DNA from: Effrenium voratum
Taxonomy: Eukaryota; Sar; Dinophyceae; Suessiales; Symbiodiniaceae
Length of the DNA: 64,000 nt
Reading direction: 5' to 3'
Assembly: GCA_963377175.1 (NCBI GenBank)
Contig: CAUJNA010003024.1
Span: forward strand, 730,487 to 794,486
The notes beneath the pieces were generated by a model, which saw nothing but the letters and a program-made list of their open reading frames with translations, did not search any database and was not told the origin of the DNA. The translations under genes and the position numbers were made by a program. Positions 24,846-64,000 of the stretch are shown here, in pieces (position 1 is the stretch's first letter; each line of letters starts with the position of its first letter).

Positions 24846-26400
24846 AGGAAGTTGAAAGTCCATGAACTCAGGAAGTGAAAAGCTCAAAGCCCCTCCACTG
24901 GTTGTCAGCTCTTTCTACTTGGTTGTTTAGATTTATAGTTAGGTGTTCCATGGGGTGATTTCCCATTTACTCAGGAAGTAAGGTTTTGTGGGCATCGGTG
25001 CTGTTTTTCGGCGGTCTCTTTTCAGCCCGGCCTGGAGACGCTCGACGCTGCCAGCCCCGCGCTGAACCGGGCTTGCACCACCTGCGCTTGGAGATCCGGA
25101 CTTTTCAGCCCATATTTCCCAACCAAACTCAGTGGCTTTCTGCTCCCCTGCTAAAAGCTAAACTTTTAGGGGTTTCGGTAGATAAATTATTAGTTGGCAA
25201 AAAGTTAAAGTCCAAACATCTAAGCAAAATGCGCCAAAGCACAGCATCCATTGAACTGTCAAGGTAGTGGGGTAAGGGATGCCAGGCCCAGCACCCCAAA
25301 CCTTTTTTTTTTTGCAGGGAAGTCATCAGGCTATGGGTCAAAACCCCGGTACCCCGGTGAACACCCAGAAAGCCTTCCAAGAAAACAACAGTGGAGTGGT
25401 AACCATCCCCATTTTTGGCACCTTAGGTTTTGACCACGACCATCAATCTTGGACATATTCTTCCGACTCGTATGGCCCTTCTGATCGGTATGCTCCTTCA
25501 GGCTTCAACATGACTGTTTCAAGGGACCGAAATAATGCAAGATACTTCCTTGCGCTTACATAATTCCGCAAACAAAGCATCACTTCAACACGGCCCAATG
25601 GTGTACAGGCCCAAGAATGGGTTGTTGTGGGGCACTTTCTGACAAAAAAGACCCTTGCATAATGATGTGCAGGGAGGAGTAGCCACGCTTTGGGGCTTAT
25701 CGCTCACACGGGCAACCCAGGACGAAACCAAAACACGTAGTCATACTCAGTATCATACTCACGTCCTGAGCGCGTTGGCGCTACAAGAGTGCTACAAGAA
25801 CGTCCACACGCGTTGGCGCAGGGCACGGAAGGGAGCCCTTTCGGGAGTTTGCATGCCCATTCAATGTGCAGCTAGCGCACATTTGGACATGTCCACAGAA
25901 CATGGGTGGGATACCATGTGATAACGAACTCTTATCTTGCGTGGGTATTTTGAGACGAAACCAAGTTGTGAGCATAAGATACGAATGTGTGCAATCCATT
26001 CATTCTGCAGACCCTAATAATCTGCCTATGTTACCCATGCAAAACATCCAGAGCGGCCGGCGTCTTCGGCCAACAAATATATGGCACGGCCTCAATAAAC
26101 CAACCCCCTTACAACCCTTGATATGGTAGCGAGCAGCTTTGTCTTTTATAGCCCCCTTCTGAAAATGAACAGAACCAAAACAACAAAATAGAAACAGATT
26201 GCCAACAACTGTGAAGCTTTGAGAAGTCCAAGAAAAGCCTCCCAAACTCTGCCAAAAGAACCCAACCCTCCGCGCCCCGACCCCGAGCCCCCGGATCCTG
26301 GCACCTACGGTCCCACCCCCCACCCCGACCCCCCTGAACTCGCACCCCGACACCCCGGCAGCCCCACCGCCAGGACAAGCCAACCCGCAACCAACCATGA

Positions 26401-28190
26401 ACCAACCCTAAACCAACCCTAAATACACCCTAAACCAAACCCTAAACCGTAGACCTCTAAACCTAAACCAAGCCTAACCCTCTACCAAACCCTAAACCAA
26501 TCCCTAGACAAGAAACCCTAAACCTAAACCAACCCTAAACTAACCCTAAACCAACCCTAAATACACCCTAAACCAAACCCTAAACCAATCCCTAGACAAG
26601 AAACCCTAAACCTAAACCAACCCTAAACTAACCGCCCTAAAGCAACCCTAAATACACCCTAAACCAAACCCTAAACCAATCCCTAGACAAGAAACCCTAA
26701 ACCTAAACCAACCCTAAACTAACCCTAAGCCAACCCTAAACCAAACCCTAAACCAATCCCGAAGACAAGAAACCCTAAACCTAAACCAACCCTAAACTAA
26801 CCCTAAACCAACCCTAAATACACCCTAAACCAAACCCTAAACCGTAGACCTCTAAACCTAAACCAAGCCTAAATCAACATAAACCGAAACCCTAAACCTA
26901 AACCAACCCTAAACTAACCCTAAGCCAACCCAAAATATACCCTAAACCAATCCCGAAACCAATCCCTAGACAAGAAACCCTATACCTAAACCAACCCTAA
27001 ACTAACCCTAAACCAACCCTAAATACACCCTAAACCAAACCCTAGACAAGAAACCCTAAGCCTAAACCAACCCTAAACTAACCCTAAACCAACCCTAAAT
27101 ACACCCTAAACCAATCCCTAGACAAGAAACCCTAAACCTAAACCAACCCTAAACTAACCCTAAACCAACCCTAAATACACCCTAAACCAAACCCTAAACC
27201 AATCCCTAGACAAGAAACCCTAAACCTAAACCAAACCTAAACTAAAACCCTAAATACACAAACCTAAACCAATCCCTAGACCCTAAACTAACCTAAACCA
27301 ACCCTAAATACACCCTAAACAAAACCCTAAACCGTAGACCCTAAACCTAAACCAACCCTAAACAACATAAACCAACCCTAAACTAACCCTAAACCAACCC
27401 TAAATACACCCTAAACCAATCCCTAGACAAGAAACCCTAAACCTAAACCAACCCTAAACTAACCCTAAACCAACCCTAAATACACCCTAAACCAAACCCT
27501 AAACCAATCCCTAGACAAGAAACCCTAAACCTAAACCAACCCTAAACTAACCCTAAACCAAACCCTAAACCGTAGACCTCTACACCTAAACCAACCCTAA
27601 TTCAACATAAACCAACCCTAAACTAACCCTAAACCAACCCTAAATACACCCTAAACCAAACCCTAAACCAATCCATAGACAAGAAACCCTAAACCTAAAC
27701 CAACCTTAAACTCACCCTAAACCAACCCTAAATACACCCTAAACCAAACCCTAAACCGTAGACCTCTAAACCTAAACCAACCCTAAATCAACATAAACCA
27801 ACCCTAAACTAACCCTAAACCAACCCTAAACTAACCCTAAACTCCCTAAACCAATCCCTAGACAAGAAACCCTAAACCTAAACCAACCCTAAACTAACCA
27901 TAAACCAACCCTAAACTAACCCTAAACCAAACCCTAAACCGTAGACCTCTAAACCTAAACCAACCCTAAATCAACATACACCAACCCTAAACTAACCCTA
28001 AACCAACCCTAAACTAACCCTAAGCACACCCTAAACCAATCCCTAGACAAGAAACCCTAAACCTAAACCAACCCTAAACCCCTAAACCAACCCTAAATAC
28101 ACCCTAAACCAAACCCTAAACCGTAGACCTCTAAACCTAAAACAACCCTAAATCAACATAAACCAACCCTAAACTAACCCTAAACTTTTA
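26401..28190. repeat. telomere-derived interstitial satellite (left block)
   Basis: About 1.8 kb made almost wholly of CCCTAAA, CCTAAACCAA and related variants. A longer unit of about 88 bp is visible from the regular return of CCCTAGACAAGAAACCC (for example 26503, 26591 and 26682). A second variant carries CCGTAGACCTCTAAACC and TCAACATAAACC. TTTAGGG is the known telomere repeat of dinoflagellates and plants. The heavy variation and the higher-order unit mark this as an internal or subtelomeric satellite, not a functional chromosome end. Confidence 0.9.
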
Positions 28191-28249
28191 GTGGCTCGCG
28201 CCAATGTGCGCCAACACAGCAAATTTTTGAAACGGTTGCTTCGGGGGCG

Positions 28250-28390
28250 CGGGCTTTGAGGTTTGGGGCTTCAGGTTTTGGGATTCGGCGGCCGGCGTTC
28301 GGGGCTTTCGTGTTTAAGGTTTGGGGTTCGGCTTTAGGGTTTTTAGGATTTTGGGGTTTTGCGTTTTGCGGCGCAGGGCTCGGCGCTTTA
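28250..28390. repeat. degenerate TTTGGGG/TTTAGGG-like tract, G-rich on plus
   Basis: Units such as GGTTTGGGGTTCGG and GCTTTAGGGTTTTTAGG are scattered here with the G-rich strand on plus. This is the opposite orientation to the flanking satellite. A C-rich counterpart lies at 28800-29050. Confidence 0.45.
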
Positions 28391-28429
28391 GGAGCATTGC
28401 TGCGGGGGGCGCGCGCGTCGTTCGCGTGT

Positions 28430-28780
28430 TTTGCCGCTCGTCAGGCGCGCGCGCGCGCGCGTCGACGTTCGCGCGTTCTACCGCGTCGCGCGCGTGTTCT
28501 ACCGCCTCGCCAGGCGCGCGTCGGCGTTCGCGTGTTCTACCGCCTTGCCAGTCACGCGCGCGCCGCCTCGCCAGTCGCGAGCGCGTCGACGTTCGCGCGT
28601 TCTACTGCGTTGCAAGCCCGCCGTTGCGTATTCTGCCGCCTCGCCAGGCGCGCGCGTCGACGTTCGCGTGTTCTACCGCGTCGCGCGCGTATTCTACCGC
28701 CTCGCCAGGCGCGCGCCTTTTCTTGTGCGTCGCGCGCGTGTTCTACCGACTCGCCAGGCGCGCGCGTCGACACCGCGAGC
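28430..28780. repeat. GC-rich minisatellite (GTTCTACCGC...CGCCAGGCGCGCG)
   Basis: Imperfect tandem units built from GTTCTACCGCxTCGCCAGGCG, GCGCGTCGACGTTCGCG and similar pieces, recurring roughly every 40-90 bp. It keeps plus-strand frames open and gives artefactual R/A-rich peptides (VFYRLARRARRRS and shifted versions), so no gene is called. Confidence 0.7.
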
Positions 28781-28799
28781 CCCAGAGCCCAACTCCCAA

Positions 28800-29050
28800 G
28801 ACTCGCAGCCTCAAACCCTAAACATCCGAAGCCAAACCCGCCCGAAACAAAACCTGGAGCCTCGAACCAAACACGCTCCCGCCCAAAACCATAAACCCTG
28901 AAGCCCGGAACCCTTGACCTCCTTAAGCCGCGAGCCCTAAAACTCAAAAACCTTAAAGCCCCGCGAACGCCAAACTGCCCAAAAACCGCGAAGGCGCAAA
29001 CAGTCAAGCCGAAACCGCGAACCCCCGAACTCGAAACACAAAACCCCGGA
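28800..29050. repeat. degenerate CCCTAAA-like tract, C-rich on plus
   Basis: Contains CAAACCCTAAACATCC, AACCATAAACCCTGAAG and GAGCCCTAAAACTC among C/A-rich sequence. Together with 28250-28390 it makes a loosely inverted arrangement of telomere-like tracts around the minisatellite. Confidence 0.4.
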
Positions 29051-29501
29051 AATTTAAGCCCGGCGACGCAGAGAGAAGAAGAAGACAAAAATGGAAAGAA
29101 GATCGCACCGAACCGCGCGTAGCCCGGCCTCTACTGGAAAGCCCGCGCGCAAGCCGCAGCCCGCCGCGCGCGGCGCATCCCGCAGCGCAGCCGACGCCTG
29201 CGAGCGCGCGAACGCTCGGAAACCTTTGGGCTACGGCCCGTCTCCCTCCCGCGCCTCAAGGCTTTCCCCGCCGCGCCCCCAGCAGACGCCTGCCAGCGCG
29301 CGAGCTATTGGAAACCCTTGGGCCGCCGCGCCCGCGCCTCTCCAACTTCAAACAGCACGATCTCGAAGGCTTGGCGGGGGGGGGAGGCGGGGGGAGGAGC
29401 TGTTGGCCATAAGCCCTTCGAGTCAAGCTGGGCGCCTGGCGCGCCCTGGGCCACGACTTGCTCACGACATCGAACCTCGAAGTGGCGAAGCAAGAAACAA
29501 A

Positions 29502-30388
29502 TCAAGCTGCCACGGCCTCCCGATCTCTCAGAAACAATCTGAGCGCCAGACGGGGGGTCTCTTGACCTGACAGCGCAAGAGGCGGCGGAGGAGATCGGAA
29601 CAGCCGCATCTCGCGGCAAACATCTTCAAGCCCAAAGAGCAACAGCTTGCGCTTTTTGCCGCCGCAGGCACGGGCGCTTGACTCAGACGAAATTCGACCC
29701 GAAAACCGCCGACAGGCTCCGAGTTTTCGGGAAATGCCCGAGCGCGAGCGTTCGGATAGCTCGCTCAGCGCCGCGGGCCTGCGCGCCCGGGCGGCCAAGG
29801 CGAAAACGCGGCGCAAACAGCGGCGGCCAGTCCTTCCGGGAAATGCCGAGCTGGTGCTGCAGGAAGCGCGTGATCTCTTCGAGCGGCATCCTGCGGCCAT
29901 GTGGCATTTGGGTTGGGGCGCGGGCGACTACAGGTCGGCTGACATCCTGGGCATTTCCGCTTCAAACAGGCCCTCGGCCGGCTGGAAGAGGAGCCGCCGG
30001 GCAAGCTGGCCCGCTTCACGGCTCAGCTTGATTTCCCGCGCAGCGCCGGAGCGGGCGGAGCGAACAAAACATGCGAGCTCCACAAACCGCGCCGGGGCAG
30101 CCAGATCGCCGGCCGGAAGCCGCTTTCCTCCACGTGGCCCTTCCTGAGAACTTTCAGGCGATTCGACAGAAAACACAACGCAGCCGCCTGGCCCTTTCCC
30201 CTTCTCCCCTCCCCCCCAATCAAGGCCGCCAAGCCGCCAGGGCCGCGCGGCGTTCACCGTCACAGCGTCCAGCTTCATGAGCGCCGCCACCCGCGCGGTG
30301 ACTCGCGGATTCGCCGCCTTGACCCCGCCGTCTTTAAGGGCCTTAGCGGCGGCCTTCGTCACCTCCGGCAAGGAACGGCAAGCATTTC
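29502..30388 (-). other. possible downstream coding part of the GC island
   Basis: Below the RDR reading frame on the minus strand there are protein-like stretches in more than one frame, such as EIKLSREAGQLARRLLFQPA within 29930-30100 and MPLEEITRFLQHQLGISRKD near 29830-29890. I recognise no domain. They may be the C-terminal exons of the RDR gene or unrelated open frames, which are easily kept open by high GC. Confidence 0.25.
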
Positions 30389-31469
30389 TTAAGGGTGGCC
30401 CCAACAGGTGGTAGCTGTTGGATATCTACGCAACGTCATGTCGCTGCTGTCGGCGCGCAAACTCACAAAGCCCCACAGGTTGCACGGCAGGGCCGCGATC
30501 CCCGACCCTGCCTTCTGCGCGTCCCATTTCTTTGGCGCGTCGGTGGCGTGGGCGAAGTGCCCGATGTCGAAGGCAAGGTCCATGAGGCCCAGGCGGACCG
30601 AGTCAAACTCGCCTGGCCGCAAGACAACGAAGTTCAATAAAGTCATTGCGCAGAGAAGCGCTTTGCTCTTTGCTGCCGAGTCGCACGAGCAAGCTGCGCC
30701 CAAGGCCCGCTCGGCCATGACCGTGACCATAGCCTTCACGCTGAAGCTCGGCACGTCGCCAAGGTACTTAAGGTACGCCTCCAGTCCTTCGCGGACCCCC
30801 GGCTAGCTGTCAATTGCAAGGCACGGCGCGCGCCTTCGAAGGACGTGGATCTCTTCTCCAAGCAAGCCTCCACCCTCGCCAGCAGGCGGGGGCTTTGAAC
30901 TTTGAAGGAAATCCCCTAAGCGCTCCTCGCCGCCTGGCGTGTTCCGGACGAAGGCAATCAAGTCCGGGTCGTTGAAGAGCTGGAGCCCGTCGCCATCGAG
31001 GTCGCCGCCGGACCGCTCGACGATCGTGTCCTGTCGGGCTCGCGCGCAAGCCGCGCAGCACGCGGGGCGACCTACAAACCAAGTCGGGGTCCTCCTCCTT
31101 GTTCACGACGATCGTGTTTGGGTGCCCGCCGCCGTCCCCGCCCGGTCGCCGCATGCCGGGCGGCGGCCCCTTTGCCTCCCACAGGCCGATGTCGGAGGGC
31201 AAGAGGACGGGGAACCGCCAGACGACGAAGGTTCCCGTCAAGAATTCCTGCGTCGGAGGCCGAGTTTCCCTCGGCAAACACAGCCGCCCAACCCGGTCCT
31301 GGCCCTTGAAGACGTAGCAGTGCCCGGACTCCAGCTCCCCGGACGTGTCGCCCACAGCGAGGCCGGAGAAGGTTTCTCCGTCTAGCGGGAGCTCCGGCTT
31401 CTCGAGGAAGGCCTGGCGGGCTGGGCGCTCTGTCCACGCACGCGAGCGGAAAAGTTCTTCTGACCTCAC
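30389..31469 (-). pseudogene. eukaryotic-type RNA-dependent RNA polymerase (RDR/QDE-1 family), catalytic core, apparently broken
   Basis: Read on the minus strand, the segment at 31361-31308 contains GDTSGELESGHCYVF, and 31235-31173 contains GTFVVWRFPVLLPSDI...EA. These match two conserved blocks of cellular RDR polymerases (the 'DExGxLExGQxFV' and 'GxVxVxRxPxxxPxDIxxxEA' blocks). They are followed at 31012-30989 by SGGDLDGD, the metal-binding DxDGD signature, and then by LQLFNDPDLI, as in known members. The blocks are in family order and spacing. The first two lie in a different frame from the third; a 49-nt GT-AG intron at 31031-31079 would join them in frame. The DLDGD frame runs open from 31030 to 30389 except for one TAG at 30803-30805. 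Family members make double-stranded RNA for silencing. The gene may be decayed or its introns may be misread; I cannot tell which. Confidence 0.75.
31031..31079 (-). other. candidate 49-nt GT-AG intron in the RDR core
   Basis: Removing GTTTGTAGG...CCCGACAG joins DPDL to DTIVERSGGDLDGD in frame. The acceptor is followed by G (AG|G), which is typical of dinoflagellates. The length is very short, so a frameshift mutation is the alternative. Confidence 0.4.
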
Positions 31470-31849
31470 CCCTGGCCTCCTGCTTGGACTTCAAGCGTTG
31501 GCCGCCGGCTTTCAGAGCGTGCCGGGTGCCGTGGGAGAGCGTCCACGGCCGCGGCTCCTGAGCCAGACGCTTGACTCAAGCCAAAGCCGCGAAAGAAAAA
31601 CCGCAAGTCGATGCCCGCAACGGGCGTCCGCTTGCGGCTCCACGCGTCCTCTTCGCCCAGGGCCCAGGCCTCCCGGACCAAGGCGGTCGGCTGCAGGTTG
31701 GCCCGGGCTGCAGGTTGGCCCGGCCAGTTGGCAGCCAAGCCGCGGCTCCTTGGCAGGGCGCTGTTCGAAATCCCGGCCGAGGACGCGGACAAAGAAAGCT
31801 CAGAGCCGAAGCGGAGAGCAAGCCAAGTCAAACAACGTCAACGTCGTGT

Positions 31850-32584
31850 TCAAGGCCTGGCGCGCGGCGCGTGCCCAAGGAGCAACGACAGCCCCGCCCT
31901 CCAAGAAGCCTTCCTCGCCCCTGCCCGGTCCTTCTGGCGTGCCGAGCCAGACCTTGACGTTGCTTTGCCGCAGAAGGATGACTGGGCCGAGGCGTTGACC
32001 TCCAGCATGCCCTTGGCCAGGACAGCGCAGCGGTCTTGCGCCGGCAGCACCGCGCGGAACTGCGCGGCGCAGAAGCGGCCGCCGCGCCGCAGGCGCAGAG
32101 CCTCGAAGACCGGCGGCCCCGCCTCGGCCTGGCCATCAGTCACCTGGCCACGGCTCGCGAAACAACGCTCGCGACGGAAGTGGGCCCACGTCAATACCTT
32201 AACAAAGCATTTGCCTCTAGTGTTCGAACGCGCCGCTTTTTTTTGAAGAAGGGCGGGCGCGAGACGTCCCCAACCAACGCGCTCCCGAGCCGAGCGCAGC
32301 CCGCCTTCTTCTTCCTGCTGTTCTCGTCGTCCGGCACGCGACCACGGAGATCCCCGGCGGGAGCGGCGCCGTCTCCGAGGGCGTGACGAGCAGGGGCACG
32401 CGGGCGTGGGCGTCCTGGATGTTCGGACAAGCGCCGCCCGAAAGCATCCGCCCGAGCGCCCCCCTCTGCCGGTCTGCGCAGGCGTCGGCGTAGTACATGT
32501 GGCCGTCCTTTTCCGCCACCGCCTCCAAGGTCGCGGGAAAGTCTGCGCCTCAAAGCGCGAGAGCCGGAATCGTTGGGGCCCCAA
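31850..32584 (-). other. possible N-terminal exons of the RDR gene
   Basis: Upstream of the core on the minus strand are separated protein-like pieces. EKDGHMYYADACADRQRGAL lies within 32420-32516. RFCAAQFRAVLPAQD...AKGMLEV lies around 32000-32085. In the next frame ILLRQSNVKVWLG is at 31979-31941. The last two resemble the 'KGxL...IxLRxSMxKF' region that precedes the core in RDR proteins, but the match is loose. The frame change between them could be an intron or damage. No start codon can be assigned. Confidence 0.3.
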
Positions 32585-32958
32585 AGCGCGTCAAGAAAAA
32601 AACACCGTGAGTTTTTCGGGTTTGGGGTTCGAGCTTCGTTGTCTCGGCGTCGAGGGCCTTCGGGCTTCAGGCTCTCGGCGTCGAGCTGCGAGTTTCGGCT
32701 TCGAGCTGGGCGTTGCTCGGGCCCCCGCGCTTAAGCTTCGGGCGGGCGCCCCGCGCGGGAAAGATTGCGCGGCTCGGCGTGATTTGTTTTCCCGGCCGCC
32801 GACCGCGCTCGAGGGCCAGGGCGCGCCCCTCGCTGTAAAAATGACAACCTCGAGTTCAAAGACCAGGGCGAGCTCCCCCTACAAGAGCAAAGTGGTTCGC
32901 TGTTTTAGCTCTCCCTGAAAAGCGAATATTTTTTCTTGGGCGCCAAGCTGTGTTGGCG

Positions 32959-33300
32959 GACCAACCCTAAACTAACCCTAAACACACCCTAAACCAATCC
33001 CTAGACAAGAAACCCTAAACCTAAACCAACCCTAAACTAACCCTAAACCAACCCTAAATACACCCTAAACCAAACCCTAAACCGTAGACCTCTAAACCTA
33101 AACCAACCCTAAACTAACCCTAAACCAACCCTAAATACACCCTAACCCAAACCCTAAACCGTACACCTCTAAACCTAAACCAACCATAAACCAACCCTAA
33201 ATCAACATAAACCAACCCTAAACCAACCCTAAACTAACCCTAAATACAGCCCAAATATACCCTAAACCAATTCTAAACCAACCCTAAACCACCACAACCC
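32959..33300. repeat. telomere-derived interstitial satellite (right block)
   Basis: The same CCCTAAA-based satellite as the left block, in the same orientation and with the same variants (CCCTAGACAAGAAACCC, CCGTAGACCTCTAAACC, TCAACATAAACC). It ends in degraded copies and a C/A-rich stretch before a run of 17 or so G near 33328-33346. Confidence 0.9.
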
Positions 33301-33386
33301 AACCACAGGACCACAACCACAGGGGGGGGGGGGGGGGTACTTGTCTGACCCATGAGAACTGGCAACGCTGGACCATATATACATAT

Positions 33387-33570
33387 CTACAAGTTTACAA
33401 ACAATACTGATTTAAAACTAATTCGACAACAGTAGTAAATATGGACATTGATTACCTAGGTCCTGCAGTAGAGAGGACCTACAAGTTTACAAACAATACT
33501 GATTTAAACCTAATTCGACAACAGTAGTAAATATGGACATTGATTACCTAGGTCCTGCAGTAGAGAGGAC
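33387..33570. repeat. 92-bp head-to-tail duplication
   Basis: 33387-33478 and 33479-33570 are two adjacent copies that differ at one position (TTTAAAACTAA versus TTTAAACCTAA). Each ends with the first 23 bases of element A. The duplication therefore happened after A had inserted and copied its left end with the flank. Confidence 0.9.
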
Positions 33571-44011: not shown

Positions 44012-45110
44012 TTAAAATACTTCAAGGAACACCGCAAGATGATCCGCATCTTTGATTGCGAAAACGACGCGCTCGAAACGATGTGCCAGCTCACTCCGGA
44101 ACAGTTCGTCCTTGAATAACTCGGCAACCTTCCGCGGGGGGTTGTGCTTGTTGCCGCATCCCCATGCTCCCAAGACCAGTGCTTTGTGCTGATAGAAGCA
44201 AGCGATACGAAGAACGCAGCGGATCTTTCCCGCCATTGTTTGCACGTATTGGTCCATGGTCCGCTCTGATGGCTGCCCAGGTGCTGCAGCCGCGATGACA
44301 GCAATGGGAAATGGCTCAACTGGCTTGGCCCCAACGCGTAAAACTTTGACTGGATTCACATAGATAGCGGCAGTCATAGGGATGGGGAAGCAGTCTCTCA
44401 CTGCAGCTTGGTAGGTAGTTGAACGACACAAGTCACCTACCTGTCCACGCTGAACTGATCCCAAACCTGACCAGTGGCAGCTTGACATGCCAAGCACGCA
44501 ACAGTTGGGACCCAGCCTGCGAGCAGCGTGTAGGGAAACTTCGCCTGAAATTTCCAGAATGGTGTGAAAAGTTGGGTCAGGATCAACTTTCCTGGGAGGT
44601 GCTGAATGGAATATCCGGACAAATGGAGGTTGCATCTTGTTCACAGCTTCTTCGACTTCTGCTGGCAGCTTTCCTTCCCAGCAGTCCCAGCAAAAGTCGC
44701 AGTACCACTTCGCACCATCCATTCTGCCCTGCCTGCTCTCCGAATTGCACCAGTCACAATACTTGATCTCTTCCGTCATGGCAGGCTCTTCGGGGATGGC
44801 TTTCCATGAAACTTCCAAGTCTGACATGATGTGTCCAAGACTCCAAAGACTTGAGTCCGGCATAGGACAAAGACTCCAAAGACTTGAGTCCAACATCGGG
44901 TGCAGGCTGTCGCGGGAAAGGATTTCTGCAAGCTGGGCATTGAAGAAGCTGCTGCTCATCCAACCAACAGCTCCTACAATAATAAATGTGAGATTCTTGT
45001 CCAGGCAAGCAGTTCTCACAGGTCAAGCGCCGGCTCGCAAATCTGAACGACGTGCAGCCTTCAACAAAACATGGATCTTCCTCCAGTGATGTTGTTGATG
45101 TTGTTGACAT
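44012..45110 (-). CDS. zinc-binding protein with microbial-type PARG (TIGR02452/DUF2263) C-terminal domain
   Basis: Read on the minus strand, the last ~145 codons (44448 to the TAA at 44012) hold PIAVIAAAAPG, then KIRCVLRIACFYQHKALVLG, AWGCGNKHNPP and FERVVFAIKD. This is the characteristic C-terminal half of microbial-type poly(ADP-ribose) glycohydrolase macrodomains, which remove ADP-ribose from proteins. The upstream GGG...AQEE substrate-loop motif is not visible, so part of the domain is missing or on an unseen exon. The N-terminal exon starts at the ATG at 45110 (MSTTSTTS...) and carries four Cys pairs (CFVEGC, CENC, CRSC, CPAC). A second Cys cluster (CDWC...CDFCWDC) lies at about 44770-44690. 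The two zinc-like parts are in different frames, so at least one intron lies near 44760-44880; the exact border is not resolved. A 33-bp tandem duplication at 44837-44891 lies in that zone. An AG just before the ATG could be a trans-splicing acceptor. Confidence 0.75.
44837..44891. repeat. 33-bp tandem duplication inside the PARG-like gene
   Basis: AAGACTCCAAAGACTTGAGT occurs at 44837 and again at 44870. The 33-bp unit is 11 codons and does not change the frame. Confidence 0.85.
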
Positions 45111-50301: not shown

Positions 50302-52545
50302 TCACCTTCGGGCTGCGCGCTCCTGGCTGCTCTTGTTAAGTGCCTTGATGCGATTCCGCATCGACAGCAAACGTATGCGAGCCATTTTCATGAGCCCTCG
50401 CAACAAAGATCGTTTGGAGCATTGCCGGCTCACGGATTTCATCCATCTCATCCCATCCTCATCGTTGAAGCAATGTTCATATCTAACATTGTAGCCTAAG
50501 CGAATCAGCAGACGGCTCAAATCAAATCACGGCGCGTGCATCATGCTGAATATAAGGAAAGGGGCGGCAGAGCCGCGTGTCTTCGCATTGATGTTCAAAC
50601 ATCTTAGTTCTCATGGGAAGCAGCTACAAGTCTGCAAGCACACACGCACATATTGCGGATGTCAAACTTCTAGCCAAGGCACGTGCACTTTTGGCTTGCA
50701 CAACCAATAAACCAGCCCGGACCTGACCAGTGAGATTCAACACAAGGGTGCTAATTCAATCTTATCGGCGCCTCTGACTCAACCTTGTGAGCAGCATGTG
50801 CGTCGACAGGAATTTTTTGCCAACGGCGTAGATCCCTTCTGCTTGTTCCTCTGACCTTAGAGCGGACAATTTGAATTTGAGAGCCTTTCAACGGCGCAAT
50901 ATCTTTGAGTGATGTCACATGGTTCCCTCTCAATGGAAAAACATCCTCATGATCAACTGGAATTGGAACTTGGCTTTTAGGGGGACCACCTGAGCCGCCA
51001 AGCCACAGGTACCTTCCCGCCGTCTCCACTCGGTGGAACCACTGCGAGATCGCTGTCCTGAAGGCGTGGCGGGCAGGGGCGCTCACTAACCCCTAGGCCG
51101 ATAATAGTAAACAGACAAGCCACACAAAAACATGCAACGAGATATAGCCAGAAAGACACAGAGACAGAGAAAACAGAGACAACAGACAGAGACGAACTAC
51201 ACATTCAAAAACGCACGCACGTACGTGTGTTGATTTGTAAGCCAAGGCTCACTGCAACAAAGGTTGGGTTAAGCAAGATATGATCTGGCCAGTCCATTTC
51301 ACCTGCATCCACTTGTGTTTTCAACCAGCTGCAGGCAATCCTTCCAGGTTCAGCGCGCTTCGAAACCACCATCTCCAAGACTGACTGGAGCCAGACGCAT
51401 ACCACACGACCGTTGTAGCCGCGGCACGTCATATATGCCCCATTCTGGGCCTTGTAGACCTTGGAACATCTATCACACTTGCACTTACGCTTACCTGTTG
51501 TCGCACGCGCTCTAGTGCAGCCAGCCGGCCAAACGAGGGTAGAAAGCCGACTGGCTGCATGCAATGCGATTCAAGGCAGTCCAAGCTTTGAAGTCTCTAT
51601 ACGCTGCTATCAGCTGTTTGCGGAAACCAAGGCGTGGTGGTCCAAAGACACCAATGCGGCATAGCAGACACAATGAGGATCCATTTGACGTATAGAGCAG
51701 GCCAAGGTTCACGTTGTGTAGGCTGCAGTGCCGAAGCATCGTGTGGTGCATGCCCTTGATGAGAATATACGGGCCTTAAGGCTCGACTAGTGGTCATGCA
51801 CGCGTGCTGATAATTTGCTGATTTAGCGCAGAAGCAAGCTATATTGGGCCGAGTCTCATTGCAGCCCGTCTTGTGGAAGTACACGCGCAAGGAACTGAGT
51901 GTAGGACAAACGCTCATTCCACCAATTGGGCGGATCCGTGATTTTCCAGTATGGCAAGGCAGTTCCGAACTTTCCCTCAGTGTTACATCGCCAGCAGATT
52001 TGGTTGGTTTTCCAATACCTTGTCAGTCTGAAGGTGGTGTAGAAGTATTCCCAGTCCCCTCGTAGCTCTGTTACTGCAAAGCGCCTGCCAATCCCCAAGT
52101 CATTACCTTGCGGGTCATGACCTTCGAAAAGCGCATTGATGCTCTTCACTATTTCTTGCAAAATTGGATACAAACTTCGTGGCCCGAAAGAAGTTCTCGA
52201 TTCCAGCGCGCACATAAGCCAGCGCGAGCATCTATTGGAGGAAGGCTTGAATAGCGGCATGTTTAGCCATAGGCCGAGCAGCTTAGAGTCATTTGTTTCC
52301 CCGCAGCGGGCCTCGTCTCCGTAGAGCCCAAGCGGCACGTGTGACCCGTCAGAAGGATGTGCCCTGGCCCACTCCATGAAAGTTCTGGTATGTGTCCAGT
52401 ATTCTTGAACTTGTGCTTCAGGCAGTTCAAGCTTGATGTCATTAAACAAGTGCTGCAAAATCTGGTGTGGCAGAAGTACTGGCACATCGGCCAAATATTC
52501 ATCATCACTTAGATCCTTCAATCGCAACGGTGTTTTGACAATCAC
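50302..52545 (-). CDS. multi-exon gene of a large uncharacterised dinoflagellate family
   Basis: Five minus-strand blocks appear in the order I recall for a repeated dinoflagellate protein family. Block 1 (52545 to about 51900) starts at an ATG and has VPLGLYGDEARC, ELRGDWEYF and NQICWRCNTEG (a Cys-x2-Cys pair). Block 2 (about 51740-51520) has LHNVNLGLLYTS and GFRKQLIAAYRDFKAW. Block 3 (about 51450-51225) has KAQNGAYMTCRGYNGRVV and VWLQSVLEMV. Block 4 (about 51086-51000) has ARHAFRTAISQWFHRV. Block 5 (50520-50302) ends the protein with DEDGMRWMKSVSRQCSKRS. The blocks are in different frames and need introns whose borders I cannot fix. Exons upstream of 52545 may exist. The function is unknown; the high copy number of such families suggests spread by retroposition or a transposon origin, which is inference. 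Confidence 0.65.
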
Positions 52546-53360
52546 TGGTTCCTGAGATAGCAGCCAACCCTACTCCAAAAAGGTCGCAGGAAAGATCTAT
52601 TTGGGTTTGCGAAATGGCTCTTCAAAATCTATATAAGGGGGTAAGGTCTGACTGCAAAATGCAGCGCTTGTTCAGTGCAGCCATGCTTCCAAAGGCAGGC
52701 CCACGGTTCGAACAAAGTCCCGAGCGCTGTTGCCAGGCTTGAAGCTGCCCAACCTCGCTGACTTCGAACTTAGGCGCGGCCCAGCTTCCTGGTCACAGGG
52801 ACGAAGGGGATGGAACGGGTTTCTAAATGGTCGAGGGCAATCTGAACGGGAGGGCATATGGTTTTCAAGATGAAACCCCAACTTGAAATTGCAACAGCTT
52901 TGTTTCGAGCTCGAGTCACGTAGTATACGTTACTGGGTGGATTGAACGGGAGACCAAAATGGAGAAACACCAAACTCCGCACGAATGATGGGACGGCGTG
53001 CTGAATAAAGGGTTTCAGGGCCAAGCAGGTAGGGGCATTGTTGACTTTTGAGAAAATCTGAACCAATTCTTTTGGAACAGCCGTATAGGGTATCAGTTCC
53101 ATGGATCCTGCTGACTAATTGTGAACTGCGTGTGCAGGGTCCTTGTAGGCCGCTTTGCAAAATCGCATTTGAGAAGCCATCGATGAGCCCTGGGAAGCCG
53201 GGCCACGGTGTCGAAAACACAATTTTAATTGCAGGGCAATCTCAGTCAGTTGAGTTTTCACTAGAATCTAGAATGAGCTCTTCCCCCCCCCCTCCCCCCC
53301 TCCCCCCCTCCCACTATCCTTTTGGCCGGATTGAAACAAAATGAAAACTACTTTTTGCTT

Positions 53361-54984: not shown

Positions 54985-57000
54985 TTACATGCGCAAGAAG
55001 TTGCATGTTGAGCACCTGAAGCAAGCTGCCGAATGGTTGCTAAGCAAAGCGCTGCGAAGGCTGCGCCAAAAGCGCATGTAATATTTATGCGCAATCTTCT
55101 TAGATTTTGCAATTTCCTCCTTGTTCTGGACGAGCTGGGAGTTGGCCGTGTCGGCAGCAGATCCGGCGCCCTTGTCGATTGGCACCAATTGGGCGTTAGC
55201 CGGGTTGGCCGCCGGTGCAGCAGATCCGGTGCCCTTGTCGCTTGGCACCAAGTGGGAGTTGGCCGGGTTGGCCGCCGGTGTCTGTGCAGACTTGTCGTCG
55301 GGGCTGCGGGATTCGGAATTGGCTGGGTTGGCCGTCTGCTGTGAGTTGGCCGACTTGTCGTCGGGGCTGGGGGTTTCGGAATTGGCTGGGTTGGCCGTCT
55401 GGTCGTTGGGGCTGGGGGTTTCGGAATTGGCTGGTTTGGCCGTCTGCTGGGAGTTGGCAGACTTGTCGTTGGGGCTGGTGGTCTTGGAGTTGCCTGGGTT
55501 GGCCGTCTGCGCAGACTTGTCTTCTGCAGTGGTGCTCTGAGGCTTGGTGATCTGGGCCACCTGCGCAAGCTTTTCCTCGGAGCTGGTGCCCTGAGAGTTG
55601 GCTGGGTTGGCCGTCTGCTGGGAGTTGGCAGACTTGTCGTCGGGGCTGGCGATCTTGGAGTTGGCTGGGTTGGACGTCGGCTGGGAGTTGGCTGGGTTGG
55701 CCGTCTGCGCAGATTTTTCTTCTGCAGTGGTGCTCTGAAGCGTGGTGATCTGGGCCACCTGCGCAAGCTTGTCATCGGAGCTGGTGCCCTGAGAGTTGGC
55801 CGGGTTGGCCGTCTGCTGGGAATTGGCAGACTTGTCGTCGGGGCTGGCGATCTTGGAGTTGGCTGGGTTGGCCGTCGGCTGGGAGTTGGCTGGGTTGGCC
55901 GTCTGCGCAATTTGTTCTTCTGCGGTGGTGCTCTGAGGCGTGGTGATCTGGGCCACCTTGTCGTCGGAGCTGGTGCCCTGAGAGTTGGCTGGGTTGGGCA
56001 CCTGCTGGGAATTGGCAGACTTCTCGTTGGGGCTGGCGATCTTGGAGTTGGCTGGGTTGGCCGTCGGCTGGGAGTGTTCTGCAGCGGTGCTCTGAGGCGT
56101 GCCGATCTGGGCCTGCGCAAGCTTTTCCTCAGAGCTGGTACCCTGAGAGTTGGCTGGGTTGTGTGAGTTGGCCGACTTGTCGTCGGGGCTGGGGATTTCG
56201 GAATTGGCTGGGTTGGCCGTCTGCTGGGAGTTGGCAGACTTGTCGTCGGGGCTGGCGATCTTGGAGTTGGCGGGGTTGGCCGTCGGCTGGGAGTTGGCTG
56301 GGTTGGCCTTGTCATCTGCGGTGGTGCTCTGAGGCGTGGCAATCTGGGCCACCTGCGCAAGCTTGTCGTCTTGAGAGTTGGCTAGATTGGCCGTCTGCTG
56401 GGAGTTGGCTGGGTTGGCCGTCTGCTGGGAATTGGCTGGGTTGGCCGTCTCCTGGGAGTTGGCTGGGTTGGCCGTCTGCTGGGAGTTGGCTGGGTTGGCC
56501 TGCGCAGACTTGTTGTCGGGGCTGACGCCCTTGTTGGCCGAGTTGACCGATCCGTTGCCCTTGTCCTCCTGCGAGTTGATCAGGACAGGGTCGGCAGCAC
56601 ATCCGCTGCCCTGATTTGGGTCTTTCAAGCCAAACGCTTCAAAGATGTCAAAGGCCTGCCCCTGGTCCTCGAGCGTTGGCGCCACGTGCATTTCGGCATC
56701 GGGTTGTGCGCCCAGGTCAGCAGGCTGTGTCAGGTCAGTGGGCTGTGTCAACTGCTGGCTGTCCGAGGTTTGCTCTTGGGTGGCTGCGCACTGGCTGGTC
56801 TGCAGCACAGCAGTGTTCTGTGCTGGCGCTGTCTTGGGCGCTGGGATCTGCTCGTGAGTGGCAGGGCGATTCAAAGCCGCCCTTTGTGCTTGAGCCAGTT
56901 GCTCATCTGCAGGCTGCTTTGATGTTCTGCGGTGCTTTTTTGGCTGCGGGGATACAAGTCCACGGCGTGTCTTCTTGTCCTGCGGCGTCATGAGCTCCAT
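54985..57000 (-). CDS. large low-complexity protein of NPANS repeats
   Basis: A single minus-strand frame of about 670 codons from the first in-frame ATG (57000) to the stop at 54985; the frame is open back to 57150 without an ATG. The N-terminal 150 residues are Q/A/T-rich with a basic patch (PQDKKTRRG, QPKKHRRTSKQ). Then come dozens of short units such as TANPANSQQ, grouped in a longer unit of about 66 residues that also includes KIASPDDKSANSQ and LAQVAQITTPQSTTAEE. The C-terminus has a basic, aromatic stretch, KKIAHKYYMRFWRSLRSAL. No known domain. The repeats look disordered. Upstream exons are possible: another frame at 57404-57200 reads PPEPNVSAILAKAKARLQRG. The protein may be nuclear or a scaffold, but nothing in the sequence proves it. 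Confidence 0.6.
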   Translation of the reverse strand: MELMTPQDKKTRRGLVSPQPKKHRRTSKQPADEQLAQAQRAALNRPATHEQIPAPKTAPAQNTAVLQTSQCAATQEQTSDSQQLTQPTDLTQPADLGAQPDAEMHVAPTLEDQGQAFDIFEAFGLKDPNQGSGCAADPVLINSQEDKGNGSVNSANKGVSPDNKSAQANPANSQQTANPANSQETANPANSQQTANPANSQQTANLANSQDDKLAQVAQIATPQSTTADDKANPANSQPTANPANSKIASPDDKSANSQQTANPANSEIPSPDDKSANSHNPANSQGTSSEEKLAQAQIGTPQSTAAEHSQPTANPANSKIASPNEKSANSQQVPNPANSQGTSSDDKVAQITTPQSTTAEEQIAQTANPANSQPTANPANSKIASPDDKSANSQQTANPANSQGTSSDDKLAQVAQITTLQSTTAEEKSAQTANPANSQPTSNPANSKIASPDDKSANSQQTANPANSQGTSSEEKLAQVAQITKPQSTTAEDKSAQTANPGNSKTTSPNDKSANSQQTAKPANSETPSPNDQTANPANSETPSPDDKSANSQQTANPANSESRSPDDKSAQTPAANPANSHLVPSDKGTGSAAPAANPANAQLVPIDKGAGSAADTANSQLVQNKEEIAKSKKIAHKYYMRFWRSLRSALLSNHSAACFRCSTCNFLRM

Positions 57001-57403
57001 CTCCTGTGGGTTGACAGAAGCACGTTGCTCCTGCCGTTGGTTGCGTAGTATTTGCTTTCGCTCCGTGTCGACTTGGCAGTCCTGCGTTGAGATGTCACTC
57101 TTGAGCCTTGGATGGACATCATGCTTGGCTGGCTGATGGTCGAATTGCAAAAGTGCGCATGTAACATGCTGGTGATGCCAGGCAGCGACTTTGCAGACCC
57201 CTCTCGAGATAGGCTTTCTGATGGCAGGGGCGACTGGTGACGCAAAGGGGCGCCTCGCTGAAGGCGAGCCTTTGCTTTTGCGAGAATGGCGCTCACGTTG
57301 GGCTCAGGCGGCATGATTGGAGGCCAGCTAGCAAAATCACTGATCCGTGGCTTGATGTGCCAAAAAACGACCGAGTAACGAATGGTTTCTTGATGAGTAA
57401 TCA

Positions 57404-61476: not shown

Positions 61477-63475
61477 TTATTGCATGTTAACATGGGGTGC
61501 CATTCGAATCTCCGCCTTAAGCTGTTGATGAGGCTCCCTCTCACTGTTCATCCGGGTCAAGTGGTCCAAGTCCACATCAGTGACGTAGAAGTTGCGAGCG
61601 TACAGCCTGAATTCGAGCACATCAAGTTGTACTTGCGCAGCTATGCAATCTGCACACATGCAAGGATGCGCTTGATAGCTCCAGGTACGGTAAGCCTCAG
61701 ACACAACCCCTATGGTCACATTTGATTTGGAAGTGCACACGGTCCATGACCTTATAAGCAGTTGCCGCGAACACAAAAAGCGATACCGTTTCACACAATG
61801 CACACGAAGCACACGCACAAGCGGCGCGCGCGCGCAAAATGGCAGTTAAACAACACGTAAACAAACTCACACGCACCAAACAACACCAGGCATGCAACGC
61901 GGCGCATGTGCGATAAGGCCTAGGCTTACGTATCCCCGCTGTCACAGTCTGTGGCACCTCCATGTAATCGTCCATGTCTGCGATGCTCTCCAGGGCCTGA
62001 AGGTCCTCTGGCCTGAAAGCCTGCTGGGGCTCCTTCGCCGGCCTAGCCTTCGGCGCTGCCTCGCGCTCCTCTTTCACCGGCTCCTCCACCTTCCTGGCCT
62101 TTGACTTTGGGGCCGGCACGCTTGCCTCATCGCATCCTGGCTCCGCATCCTGAAGCTCCTCTTTCGCCGGCTCCGCCTCCTTCGCCAGCTCCGCATCCTG
62201 CACCTTCCTGGCCTTTGACTTTGGGGCCAGCAAACTCTGCCCCGTCTGCACTTCCTGCCCTGCCGGCCGCTTCGCCTTCCTGGCCTTCGACTTTGGGGCC
62301 AGCAAACTCTGCCCCGTCTGCACTTCCTGCGCTGCTGGCTGCTTCGCCTTCCTGGCCTTCGACTTTGGGGCCAGCAAGCTCGCAGCACTTGGCTCCACGG
62401 CCACCTCGGCTTCACGCTTGTCCAGCTCCTCTTTGAAGACTGGCGCCTTCACGCGGCCCTCCGCAACTTCGCCAGGGTCGCCCTCATCATTCTTCTGGGC
62501 TTTCTTGCCTCGGCCCCTCCCGCGGCCTTTTCCACCGCGGGATTTTCCTCGCCCCCTCCCGCGGCGTTGCTCTTGGCGCTCATCTGCAGAAGGGTCGCCA
62601 TCCTCATCCTTAGCGTAGCCCGGGTCCTCCTCGTTCAGGCGAGCAGCCTTCCGAAGCTTTCGCTGGGCCTGTGGCGAAGTCGACAATTTGAAAGCTGGAT
62701 CACGGTATTCTTAAGAGCGCTGCTATGCGGTTGCGTGGCAAAACACTTGAAAACGCGCCGGCCTGCAAAAGGTCTTCTGGGAGCTCATCATCAACGATCT
62801 CCGCCTTGAGGCAGTCCACCTTCGCCTCCACATCCTTCTCGAGCGTGGGCTCCTCTGGAAGTAGCGGCTTCTTGTCCTGGCACGAACCCAAATCTATCGC
62901 CTGCCATGCGTGCACAAATGCATGCGCCCATTACTGTCCTTGAACGTGCCGACGCCGTCGTCGCTTGACACCACGTCTTCCTCCCTCACGATTGGCACCG
63001 GCGTAGGCGTGTCCTCTTCGTGGCCAGCAGCGATGTCCTCCGTCAGCAAGAGCTTCAGGGGCTTGTGCGGAGTCACCTCGATCTCCTCATCCTGATCCTC
63101 CGCGCTAGACGAGCGCTCGAGCTCCTTCTTGGCCAGCTCAGCAGCTGCTTCCGCCACTGTCTCCTCGTCCACCGGCAGCGTCGATGCCTGGGCCATGTCT
63201 GTAGCCACCGCCTTCTCTCTGGTCACGCCGTCCTTCTTCGACATTCTCTTCGCCTGCCCTCGCTCTGCGATGAGGTCCTGCACGCTATCCCTGCCCTGGA
63301 GCTCCCCTCTCACTCTCCGACACTCCGCCCACGCAAGTGCGCTGTCCTGGCGCCTGGAAAGCGCTGCCTCCTTCAAGATCTGCATCTTCTCGTGGCCTTT
63401 CCTGCAGATCAGAGATCGTTGTATGCCTCGTGTACGGCATCGCTCATGCCCACGCCTCGCCGCTGATCGCTTCAT
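61477..63475 (-). CDS. basic repeat protein with RG-rich and KSKARK motifs
   Basis: Minus strand. Exon 1 (63475, ATG, to 62939) is K/E/R-rich (RKGHEKMQILKEAALSRRQD; later acidic EDQDEEIEV). Exon 2 (62876-62763) reads DKKPLLPEEPTLEKDVEAK... to ELPEDLLQ. Exon 3 (62668-61930) begins AQRKLRKAARL, has an RG-rich block (RGRGRGKSRGGKGRGRGRGK) and four copies of a unit starting LAPKSKARK, the first two of 24 residues. It ends before a GTAAGC donor. A likely last exon (61631-61477) reads LDVLEFRLYARNFYVTDVDL and stops at 61477; its acceptor is less certain. RG-rich and Lys/Arg-rich proteins often bind nucleic acid, so a nuclear or RNA-related role is possible but unproven. The true start may lie further upstream, because CAG|GAAAGGCC near 63400 could also be an exon border. 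Confidence 0.6.
62669..62762 (-). other. 94-nt GC-AG intron
   Basis: TTGCAG|GCCGGC at the donor and CCACAG|GCCCAG at the acceptor; CAGGCC is repeated at both borders. Removal joins PEDLLQ to AQRKLRK in frame. Confidence 0.65.
62877..62938 (-). other. 62-nt GA-AG intron (or equivalent within a repeated border)
   Basis: TTCAAG|GACAGTAATG at the donor and GTGCCAG|GACAAG at the acceptor. AGGACA is repeated at both borders, so the exact cut could slide. Removal joins VGTFK to DKKPLLPEE in frame. Confidence 0.6.
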
Positions 63476-64000
63476 CGCGCTATTGCAAATGAAGCTCGCG
63501 CAGCCTCTCTGTATGGATGCTTCGGCAATCGTCCAGTCCTGCGCGTTGACGTCTCACGCGTGCGCACGCAAGCACAAAGAAACACAATCAACACACGTGC
63601 GCGCTCAATGCTTTGAGTGTTAGCTAATTTGCCTGCCTGTTTGGAGCTGAAAGTGTTTTTTAGCGTTAGCGTTCGTGTTTGTGTGTATATGTGAATTGCC
63701 CAGCTGCCGATGGACTGCGAGGTCAAAGCGACCCACCATATAGCCTTCTAGCCTTGCTTGGCGTAATTTCGAAATTGAAACCAAATCGAATCCGAATAGC
63801 AATATTGCGCACATCACCTTGTTTCAATTGGACCGCAAGCCGGAAAGGCAAGCAAACCAGCTGCAAGAACTCAAGGCGTCGCCTCGCATGAACGGGGTGC
63901 AAAGAACAAGGGTGAACCGCCACGGTGAACCAGAATATCAATCAGTCAAGCAATCAACCAACTAACCAATCAATCAATCAGTTTGCAATCAACCAACCAA
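63476..64000. other. window end without a supported gene
   Basis: No supportable exon. The last 60 bases are CAAT/CAAC tetranucleotide repeats (from about 63938). Confidence 0.5.

What the first reader, a model, noticed from the sequence alone, without database searches (positions are those of the whole stretch)
28209..32958. A GC-rich island with 12-bp inverted ends splits a telomere-like satellite and carries an RNA polymerase gene
Seen: an abrupt change to very GC-rich sequence between two blocks of the same satellite in the same orientation; exact 12-bp inverted repeats at both borders; RDR-type polymerase motifs inside. Inference: this could be an undescribed large mobile or integrated element that targets telomere-like DNA and carries an RNA-dependent RNA polymerase. 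Same-orientation satellite on both sides argues for insertion into one array and against fusion of two chromosome ends.
Basis: partly seen in the sequence, partly recalled or inferred. Interest (0 to 1): 0.9.

Follow-up and report, generated by a model that had tools for sequence, protein, structure and literature searches.

The report
Gene-carrying DNA insert in telomere-like satellite
In what is probably a dinoflagellate alga, a 4.8-kb stretch of GC-rich DNA, carrying part of a gene for an RNA-copying enzyme, looks inserted into a telomere-like repeat; its ends resemble a known class of gene-capturing mobile elements, but with only one copy in hand this is not proven.

Summary
A 65% GC island (about 28185-32960), not depleted in CpG, interrupts one CCCTAAA-type satellite. 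An exact 12-bp inverted repeat lies near both borders (0 of 5000 shuffles): 1-2 nt from the right border, 23 bp inside the left one. The host is almost certainly Effrenium voratum or a close relative: the one protein relative found is an E. voratum protein, nearly identical in its best blocks. The gene is a eukaryotic-type RDR (Pfam RdRP) on the minus strand. This copy keeps introns, lacks about the first 250 residues of the E. voratum protein and needs frame shifts against it, so it is probably a broken fragment moved as DNA. Joining the flanks restores a continuous satellite unit without clear target duplication (random joins do as well in 2-6%), which favours insertion over end-to-end fusion. 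The asymmetric inverted repeats and terminal hairpin resemble non-autonomous Helitron2/Helentron elements, which can capture gene pieces. That filing is a hypothesis: no second copy, no Rep/helicase and no long reads could be examined, since the genome search did not complete. Targeting of telomeric DNA and a working RDR cargo are not shown.

The parts
26380..28185 (+). CCCTAAA-type (TTTAGGG-like) satellite, left block
   Evidence: Tandem Repeats Finder rows; sequence
28185..32960 (-). the inserted island (ends uncertain by 1-2 nt), best read 5'->3' on the minus strand
   Evidence: composition; flank joining with equal best fits for left/right trims 0/2, 1/1, 2/0
32947..32958 (-). 12-bp inverted repeat, copy 1-2 nt from the right border (inferred 5' end of the element)
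   Evidence: significance
32941..32958 (-). hairpin overlapping the inverted repeat (6-bp stem, 6-nt loop)
   Evidence: DNA fold of 32935-32960 (-), z -2.45, 6 of 200 shuffles as good; 18 hairpins of at least that stem are listed in the island, so by itself not rare
28209..28220 (+). 12-bp inverted repeat, second copy, 23 bp inside the left border (inferred 3' end of the element)
   Evidence: sequence
28185..28208 (-). non-satellite tail outside the second repeat copy, with a possible 4-bp-stem hairpin about 7 nt from the border
   Evidence: fold of 28185-28225 (-), no better than shuffles: z 0.02, 106 of 200 as good
30512..32550 (-). truncated, intron-containing RDR (cellular RNA-dependent RNA polymerase) copy, collinear with residues about 251-787 of P0001
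30389..31102 (-). two open stretches in one frame with the DLDGD motif (about 31003-30989) and the following RDR segment
   Evidence: Pfam RdRP profile positions 431-452, E 0.016 for the 30803-31102 piece, 0.056 for the whole
31098..31490 (-). open stretch with the preceding RDR motif block
   Evidence: Pfam RdRP profile positions 348-408, E 0.0079
31031..31091 (-). intron, GA...AG
   Evidence: spliced alignment with P0001
31248..31298 (-). intron, GA...AG
31413..31464 (-). intron, GT...AG
32144..32304 (-). intron, GC...AG
28221..28385 (-). degenerate TTTAGGG-like block, opposite orientation to the flanking satellite
   Evidence: 38 near-matches against 10.7 +- 4.8 in 100 shuffles; aligns to inverted satellite, 0 of 200 shuffles as good
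28386..28770 (+). CG-rich short tandem-like repeats
   Evidence: repeat families D1-D3, D5
28771..29075 (+). degenerate CCCTAAA-like block, same orientation as the satellite
   Evidence: 48 near-matches against 18.5 +- 5.4 in 100 shuffles; alignment to satellite reached by 6 of 200 shuffles
32960..33300 (+). same satellite, right block, same orientation

Best explanation
The island is a non-autonomous mobile DNA element inserted into a CCCTAAA-type satellite of an Effrenium-like dinoflagellate. It has the end plan of asymmetric-inverted-repeat rolling-circle elements (Helitron2/Helentron/HINE type). Read on the minus strand, the 12-bp repeat sits 1-2 nt from the 5' end and folds into a hairpin; its inverted copy lies 23 bp before the 3' end; insertion is in a T-rich telomere-like target with no clear target duplication. 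Inferred mechanism: a Rep/helicase supplied from elsewhere nicks at the 5' end, copies one strand by rolling circle and joins it into the target. At some earlier time the element picked up, at DNA level, an intron-containing piece of a host RDR gene, which has since broken. Shown: end repeats, 5' hairpin, RDR identity, introns, missing N-terminal part and frame differences against P0001; suggestive: the in-register join of the flanks. Inferred: mobility, rolling circle, capture.
For: Inverted repeat near the ends, 0 of 5000 shuffles. Flanks join into a continuous satellite unit: 3 edits in 90 bases, 7 in 200, where uninterrupted stretches of the array searched the same way have medians of 3 and 18. 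Best with a 2-bp overlap; a 24-bp duplication fits worse (6 against 3 edits). Asymmetric placing and hairpin resemble FoHeli/Helitron2 (12-bp repeat, hairpins, start TC, 3' copy given as ~20-40 bp before the terminus in a legend; passages of PMC5148889) and HINE/Helentron (12-15 bp subterminal repeats 2-4 nt from the 5' end, TT preference; passages of PMC4067079). Introns kept, so the RDR copy moved as DNA. CpG 1.18 against 0.57-0.68 outside suggests a different or recent origin.
Against: One copy only; two protein searches showed a single relative, so no sign of a multiplied RDR cargo. No Rep/helicase: none in the six-frame Pfam scan of the island; of the flanks only six open frames were scanned. 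The 3' hairpin is no better than shuffles and hairpins are common in the island. The 3' distance of 23 bp is shorter than FoHeli's 38 and 51 bp in the paper's text and HINE's 38-60 bp. The same papers do not establish absence of duplication for Helentrons (DINE-1: inconclusive), and gene capture was judged unimportant in FoHeli. Random joins do as well in 2-6% of trials.
Confidence: 0.38

Rival explanations
1. Subtelomeric segment exchange or filler DNA: a piece of a GC-rich RDR-bearing region, itself near telomere-like repeats, was copied into the satellite during break repair or ectopic recombination. No transposition enzyme was involved.
For: Degenerate telomere-like blocks lie inside the island near its left end in both orientations. 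The RDR copy is incomplete. Only one relative was found.
Against: A 12-bp exact inverted repeat near both ends (0 of 5000) is not expected of filler. The satellite is restored without loss or gain beyond a 2-bp overlap.
Confidence: 0.31
2. A non-autonomous cut-and-paste DNA transposon with short terminal inverted repeats that captured an RDR fragment (Pack-MULE-like, family unknown).
For: 12-bp inverted repeat, about 4.75 kb between the outer ends of the repeats, gene piece with introns.
Against: 23 bp lie outside the left repeat; by eye no duplication flanks the two repeat copies. At the satellite borders the possible duplications are 2 bp, or 24 bp, which random satellite cuts give in 6.7% of 200,000 pairs.
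Confidence: 0.14
3. Assembly join: island and satellite belong to different places and were merged at the repeat.
For: Published E. voratum assemblies combine short and long reads, or linked reads, and were scaffolded with transcripts (passages of PMC11114475); satellites are easy places to misjoin (general knowledge). Whether this window comes from one of them is not known.
Against: No N run in the window. Inverted repeat near both borders and an in-register satellite on either side.
Confidence: 0.12
4. An RDR-carrying telomere-targeting element of a new class that uses the polymerase itself.
For: RDR inside an end-delimited insert in telomere-like DNA.
Against: The RDR copy lacks its N-terminal part and needs frame shifts against P0001; one relative found; one insertion site.
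Confidence: 0.05

Closest known systems
Helitron2 / FoHeli elements of Fusarium oxysporum (PMC5148889, passages seen)
   Same: 12-bp asymmetric inverted repeat, 5' hairpin overlapping it, possible TC start, 3' copy some tens of bp before the terminus, about 5-6 kb
   Different: no Rep/helicase found here; different terminal letters; 3' distance 23 bp against 38 and 51 bp in the text (~20-40 in a legend); one copy only; dinoflagellate host; carries an RDR piece
HINE / DINE-1 / Helentron non-autonomous elements (PMC4067079, passages seen)
   Same: 12-15 bp subterminal inverted repeats that are partly palindromic, close to the 5' end and further from the 3' end; T-rich target; tandem repeats inside some copies
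   Different: 3' distance 23 bp here against 38-60 bp; carries a gene piece
[quoted passage not shown]
   Same: large gene-carrying elements associated with telomeric repeats
   Different: they encode reverse transcriptase and end in a hammerhead ribozyme with telomeric complement; no Rfam match at gathering thresholds in the window, and kept introns show DNA-level movement
Cellular RNA-dependent RNA polymerases (RDR family, Pfam PF05183)
   Same: collinear motif blocks and a DLDGD motif; the E. voratum protein scores 42.4 bits
   Different: divergent: no solved structure matched P0001 up to E 10; this copy N-terminally truncated and frame-shifted against P0001

Membership tests
Helitron2/Helentron-type element | asymmetric short inverted repeats at the two ends | tested here: met
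   12 bp, 1-2 nt from one border, 23 bp from the other
Helitron2/Helentron-type element | hairpins at the termini | tested here: inconclusive
   5' hairpin z -2.45 (6 of 200 shuffles as good), 3' end no better than shuffles; hairpins common in the island
Helitron2/Helentron-type element | T-rich/TT target; absence of target duplication (stated for canonical Helitrons in PMC4067079; for Helitron2 recalled) | tested here: inconclusive
   joined flanks restore the satellite with a 2-bp overlap; T|T is one of three equal readings; random joins do as well in 2-6%
Helitron2/Helentron-type element | Rep/helicase encoded in the element or by relatives with the same ends | tested here: inconclusive
   none in the island's six frames by Pfam at E <= 1, as for a non-autonomous copy; relatives not searchable, genome search unanswered in 14 tries
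Helitron2/Helentron-type element | multiple copies with shared ends | not testable with these tools
   The genome search unanswered; one exact pair in the window
Canonical Helitron1 | 5'-TC and 3'-CTRR with A|T insertion | tested here: not met
   TC start possible, but the last bases before the satellite are not CTRR (a CTAA lies 3 nt inside) and the target is not A|T
TIR DNA transposon | terminal inverted repeats flanked directly by a target duplication | tested here: not met
   23 bp outside the left repeat; no duplication seen next to the repeats (by eye)
Cellular RDR (PF05183) | significant match to the family profile | tested here: met
   joined pieces 29 bits, cut-off 23.8; P0001 42.4 bits
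Cellular RDR (PF05183) | intact reading frame over the gene | tested here: not met
   six frame shifts against P0001 in the spliced alignment, near 32339, 31993, 31952, 31830, 31570 and 30916; the first two lie between well-aligned blocks, the rest in poorly aligned stretches. Errors in the assembly or in P0001's gene model cannot be excluded

The most novel reading that the evidence does not exclude
Dinoflagellates carry a family of CpG-rich rolling-circle-like elements that insert preferentially into telomere-like satellites and spread pieces or whole copies of an RNA-silencing polymerase gene, so that the silencing gene itself is shaped by the elements it should silence.
Probability: 0.08. 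Interest if true: 0.8.

Novelty: new member of a known kind. Interest (0 to 1): 0.42.

Why it matters
If the element reading holds, this is a gene-capturing element with defined ends in a Symbiodiniaceae genome that moved a fragment of an RNA-silencing-type polymerase gene into telomere-like DNA. It gives exact end sequences to search for in the three published E. voratum assemblies (PMC11114475). It also points to a very divergent RDR in this lineage.

Tried and rejected
A 24-bp target duplication (24 identical bases on either side): random satellite cuts give 24 bp or more in 6.7% of pairs, and the joined site fits worse than with a 2-bp overlap. Fusion of two chromosome ends: same orientation and in-register satellite speak against it. 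A telomere-capped mini-chromosome reading of the inner telomere-like blocks: the right block is weak (12 near-matches, equal to the best of 100 shuffles; 9 of 200 shuffles align as well), so not pursued. Phage, plasmid or viral origin: no match of the island in plasmids, none of P0001 in phages or PHROGs, 22 pattern stretches in viral contigs but none confirmed. An endogenous RNA virus: such elements are reported from dinoflagellate genomes (PMC10235124, seen only in the listing), but the Pfam match here is to the cellular family PF05183. Bacterial or archaeal contigs: 10 pattern stretches, none confirmed. The structure prediction of P0001 was useless (mean pLDDT 37.6), so no fold search was run. 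No Rfam family at gathering thresholds and no tRNA in the window. The satellite 24-mer was absent from viral contigs. NCBIfam and Pfam gave nothing for other open frames of the island.

Own errors: searches used a wrong reading frame; their negative results say nothing about the RDR.
Full report
What is there. Between two blocks of a CCCTAAA-type satellite (26380-28185 and 32960-33300, same orientation) lies a 4.77-kb island with GC 0.653, against 0.502 and 0.511 in the long flanks. CpG observed/expected is 1.18 in the island and 0.57 and 0.68 in the flanks; TpG/CpA is 0.85 against 1.17 and 1.19. Two GC-rich long-ORF stretches of the window, 54985-57303 and 61697-63553, have CpG 0.70 and 0.93. 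The island, its non-coding parts included, has therefore not lost CpG as its surroundings have. The 12-mer CGCCAACACAGC occurs exactly twice in the window, once per strand, near the two borders; 0 of 5000 single-base shuffles of the 45-nt ends reach such a repeat. Looser matches (up to 2 mismatches) number 27 against 6.06 expected, 13 of them in one repetitive stretch, none with a single mismatch. The window has no N run.

Host. A protein search with the joined open pieces gave one relative at E <= 1 among 7988 scored candidates: P0001, 787 aa, 'unnamed protein product, partial [Effrenium voratum]', on a 14,317-bp contig, E 2.7e-162, 65% identity over 97% of the query. A search with P0001 itself gave only P0001 among 7992 candidates. 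Only candidates sharing most 5-residue words were scored, so divergent relatives may be missed. The best blocks are nearly identical: 53 of 54, 80 of 82, 37 of 40, 32 of 35 and 26 of 28 residues; others are lower, such as 36 of 43 and 18 of 23 (its output was cut in the middle, so not every block was seen there). E. voratum has about 50.7% GC, 61.0% in coding regions (passages of PMC11114475), which fits the window. I take the host as E. voratum or a very close relative; the window's own label was not available. E. voratum is a Symbiodiniaceae dinoflagellate. Dinoflagellate telomeres are TTTAGGG (passages of PMC11453091, and PMC11508785).

The gene. Two open pieces in different frames each match only Pfam RdRP, in collinear parts of the profile, each under the cut-off. 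The joined protein scores 29 bits, above the cut-off of 23.8, and P0001 42.4 bits. No solved structure matched P0001 up to E 10, so this RDR is divergent. A spliced alignment of P0001 residues 229-787 to the minus strand matched 538 codons, 464 identical. It placed seven introns. Four lie flush between good blocks: 32304-32144, 31464-31413, 31298-31248 and 31091-31031, with GC, GT, GA and GA starts and AG ends; three (at 32648, 31913 and 30833) are less secure. My aligner allowed only GT, GC or GA starts and AG ends, so these pairs are built in; GC or GA starts make up 25-74% in Symbiodiniaceae (PMC11453091). Residues 1 to about 250 of P0001 had no convincing match in the 64-kb window; one weak stretch (residues 38-192, E 8e-4) falls on the RDR exons in another frame and looks like composition (tblastn). 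The spliced alignment needed six frame shifts, near 32339, 31993, 31952, 31830, 31570 and 30916. The first two lie between well-aligned blocks; the others lie in poorly aligned stretches where P0001, itself a gene prediction, may be wrong. The likeliest reading is a truncated, decaying copy moved as DNA, not through mRNA. That it was cut inside an intron is an inference from the end of similarity near 32550.

The insertion. Joining the flanks with a 2-bp overlap gives a sequence that is nearly present, uninterrupted, elsewhere in the same array: 2 edits in 60 bases, 3 in 90, 3 in 120, 4 in 160, 7 in 200. The best place differs: it ends near 28048 for the shorter joins and near 27900-27916 for the two longest. 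Uninterrupted array stretches, searched the same way with themselves masked (60 trials each), have medians of 2, 3, 7, 12 and 18. Random joins reach the observed value in 0.063, 0.051, 0.027, 0.025 and 0.023 of 381, 375, 367, 358 and 348 trials, and in 0.064 of 578. There, sliding only the right start gave 0 of 74, sliding only the left end 5 of 187. This favours insertion into one array, at a suggestive level. A 24-bp identity across the borders is not strong evidence for a target duplication.

Ends and mechanism. On the minus strand the element starts with a possible TC, then the repeat, which forms a 6-bp hairpin (z -2.45). The inverted copy lies 23 bp before the other end. This asymmetry is awkward for a classical TIR transposon. 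It resembles the plan described for Helitron2/FoHeli (passages of PMC5148889) and for Helentron/HINE elements (passages of PMC4067079). Helitrons can capture gene pieces (passages of PMC6431247), though in FoHeli capture was judged unimportant. Helitrons are reported in Symbiodinium genomes (one passage of PMC9087856). Against this: no Rep/helicase, no second copy, weak 3' hairpin, and a 3' distance shorter than the 38-60 bp (HINE) and 38 and 51 bp (FoHeli) in the texts. I give the rolling-circle reading 0.38.

Inner repeats. Near the left end lie two degenerate telomere-like blocks in opposite orientation around CG-rich repeats. They may mean that the donor DNA was itself subtelomeric, the main support for the segment-exchange rival.

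Not settled. Copy number, targeting and read support could not be tested: the genome search was unanswered in all 14 tries. In the listings of four paper searches (20 of 274, 20 of 1380, 12 of 309 and 1 of 1 papers shown) no title or abstract start described a dinoflagellate cellular RDR or an RDR-carrying telomeric element. One listed paper (PMC10235124) concerns endogenous RNA-virus elements in dinoflagellates. This is a statement about those listings only.

Noticed in passing
window 33322-33570: A run of about 16 G follows the right satellite block, and a 92-bp unit is repeated twice at 98% (33387-33570).
   Followed up: no
window 54985-57303 (-): A 772-aa open frame with many imperfect ANPANSQ-type repeats; no Pfam match.
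   Followed up: partly
window 44012-45022 (-): A 336-aa open frame with a weak match to the microbial-type PARG catalytic domain (E 0.039, under the cut-off).
   Followed up: partly
window 51856-52569 (-): A 237-aa protein-like open frame without Pfam match.
   Followed up: partly
window 61697-62710 (-): A lysine/arginine/glutamate-rich 337-aa frame with a 72-bp tandem repeat (62203-62381); no Pfam match.
   Followed up: partly
window 31018-31117 (-): A 12-base direct repeat lies shortly before and just after one inferred RDR intron, so the splice point there is ambiguous; direct repeats at introns recall dinoflagellate introners (recalled, not tested).
   Followed up: partly
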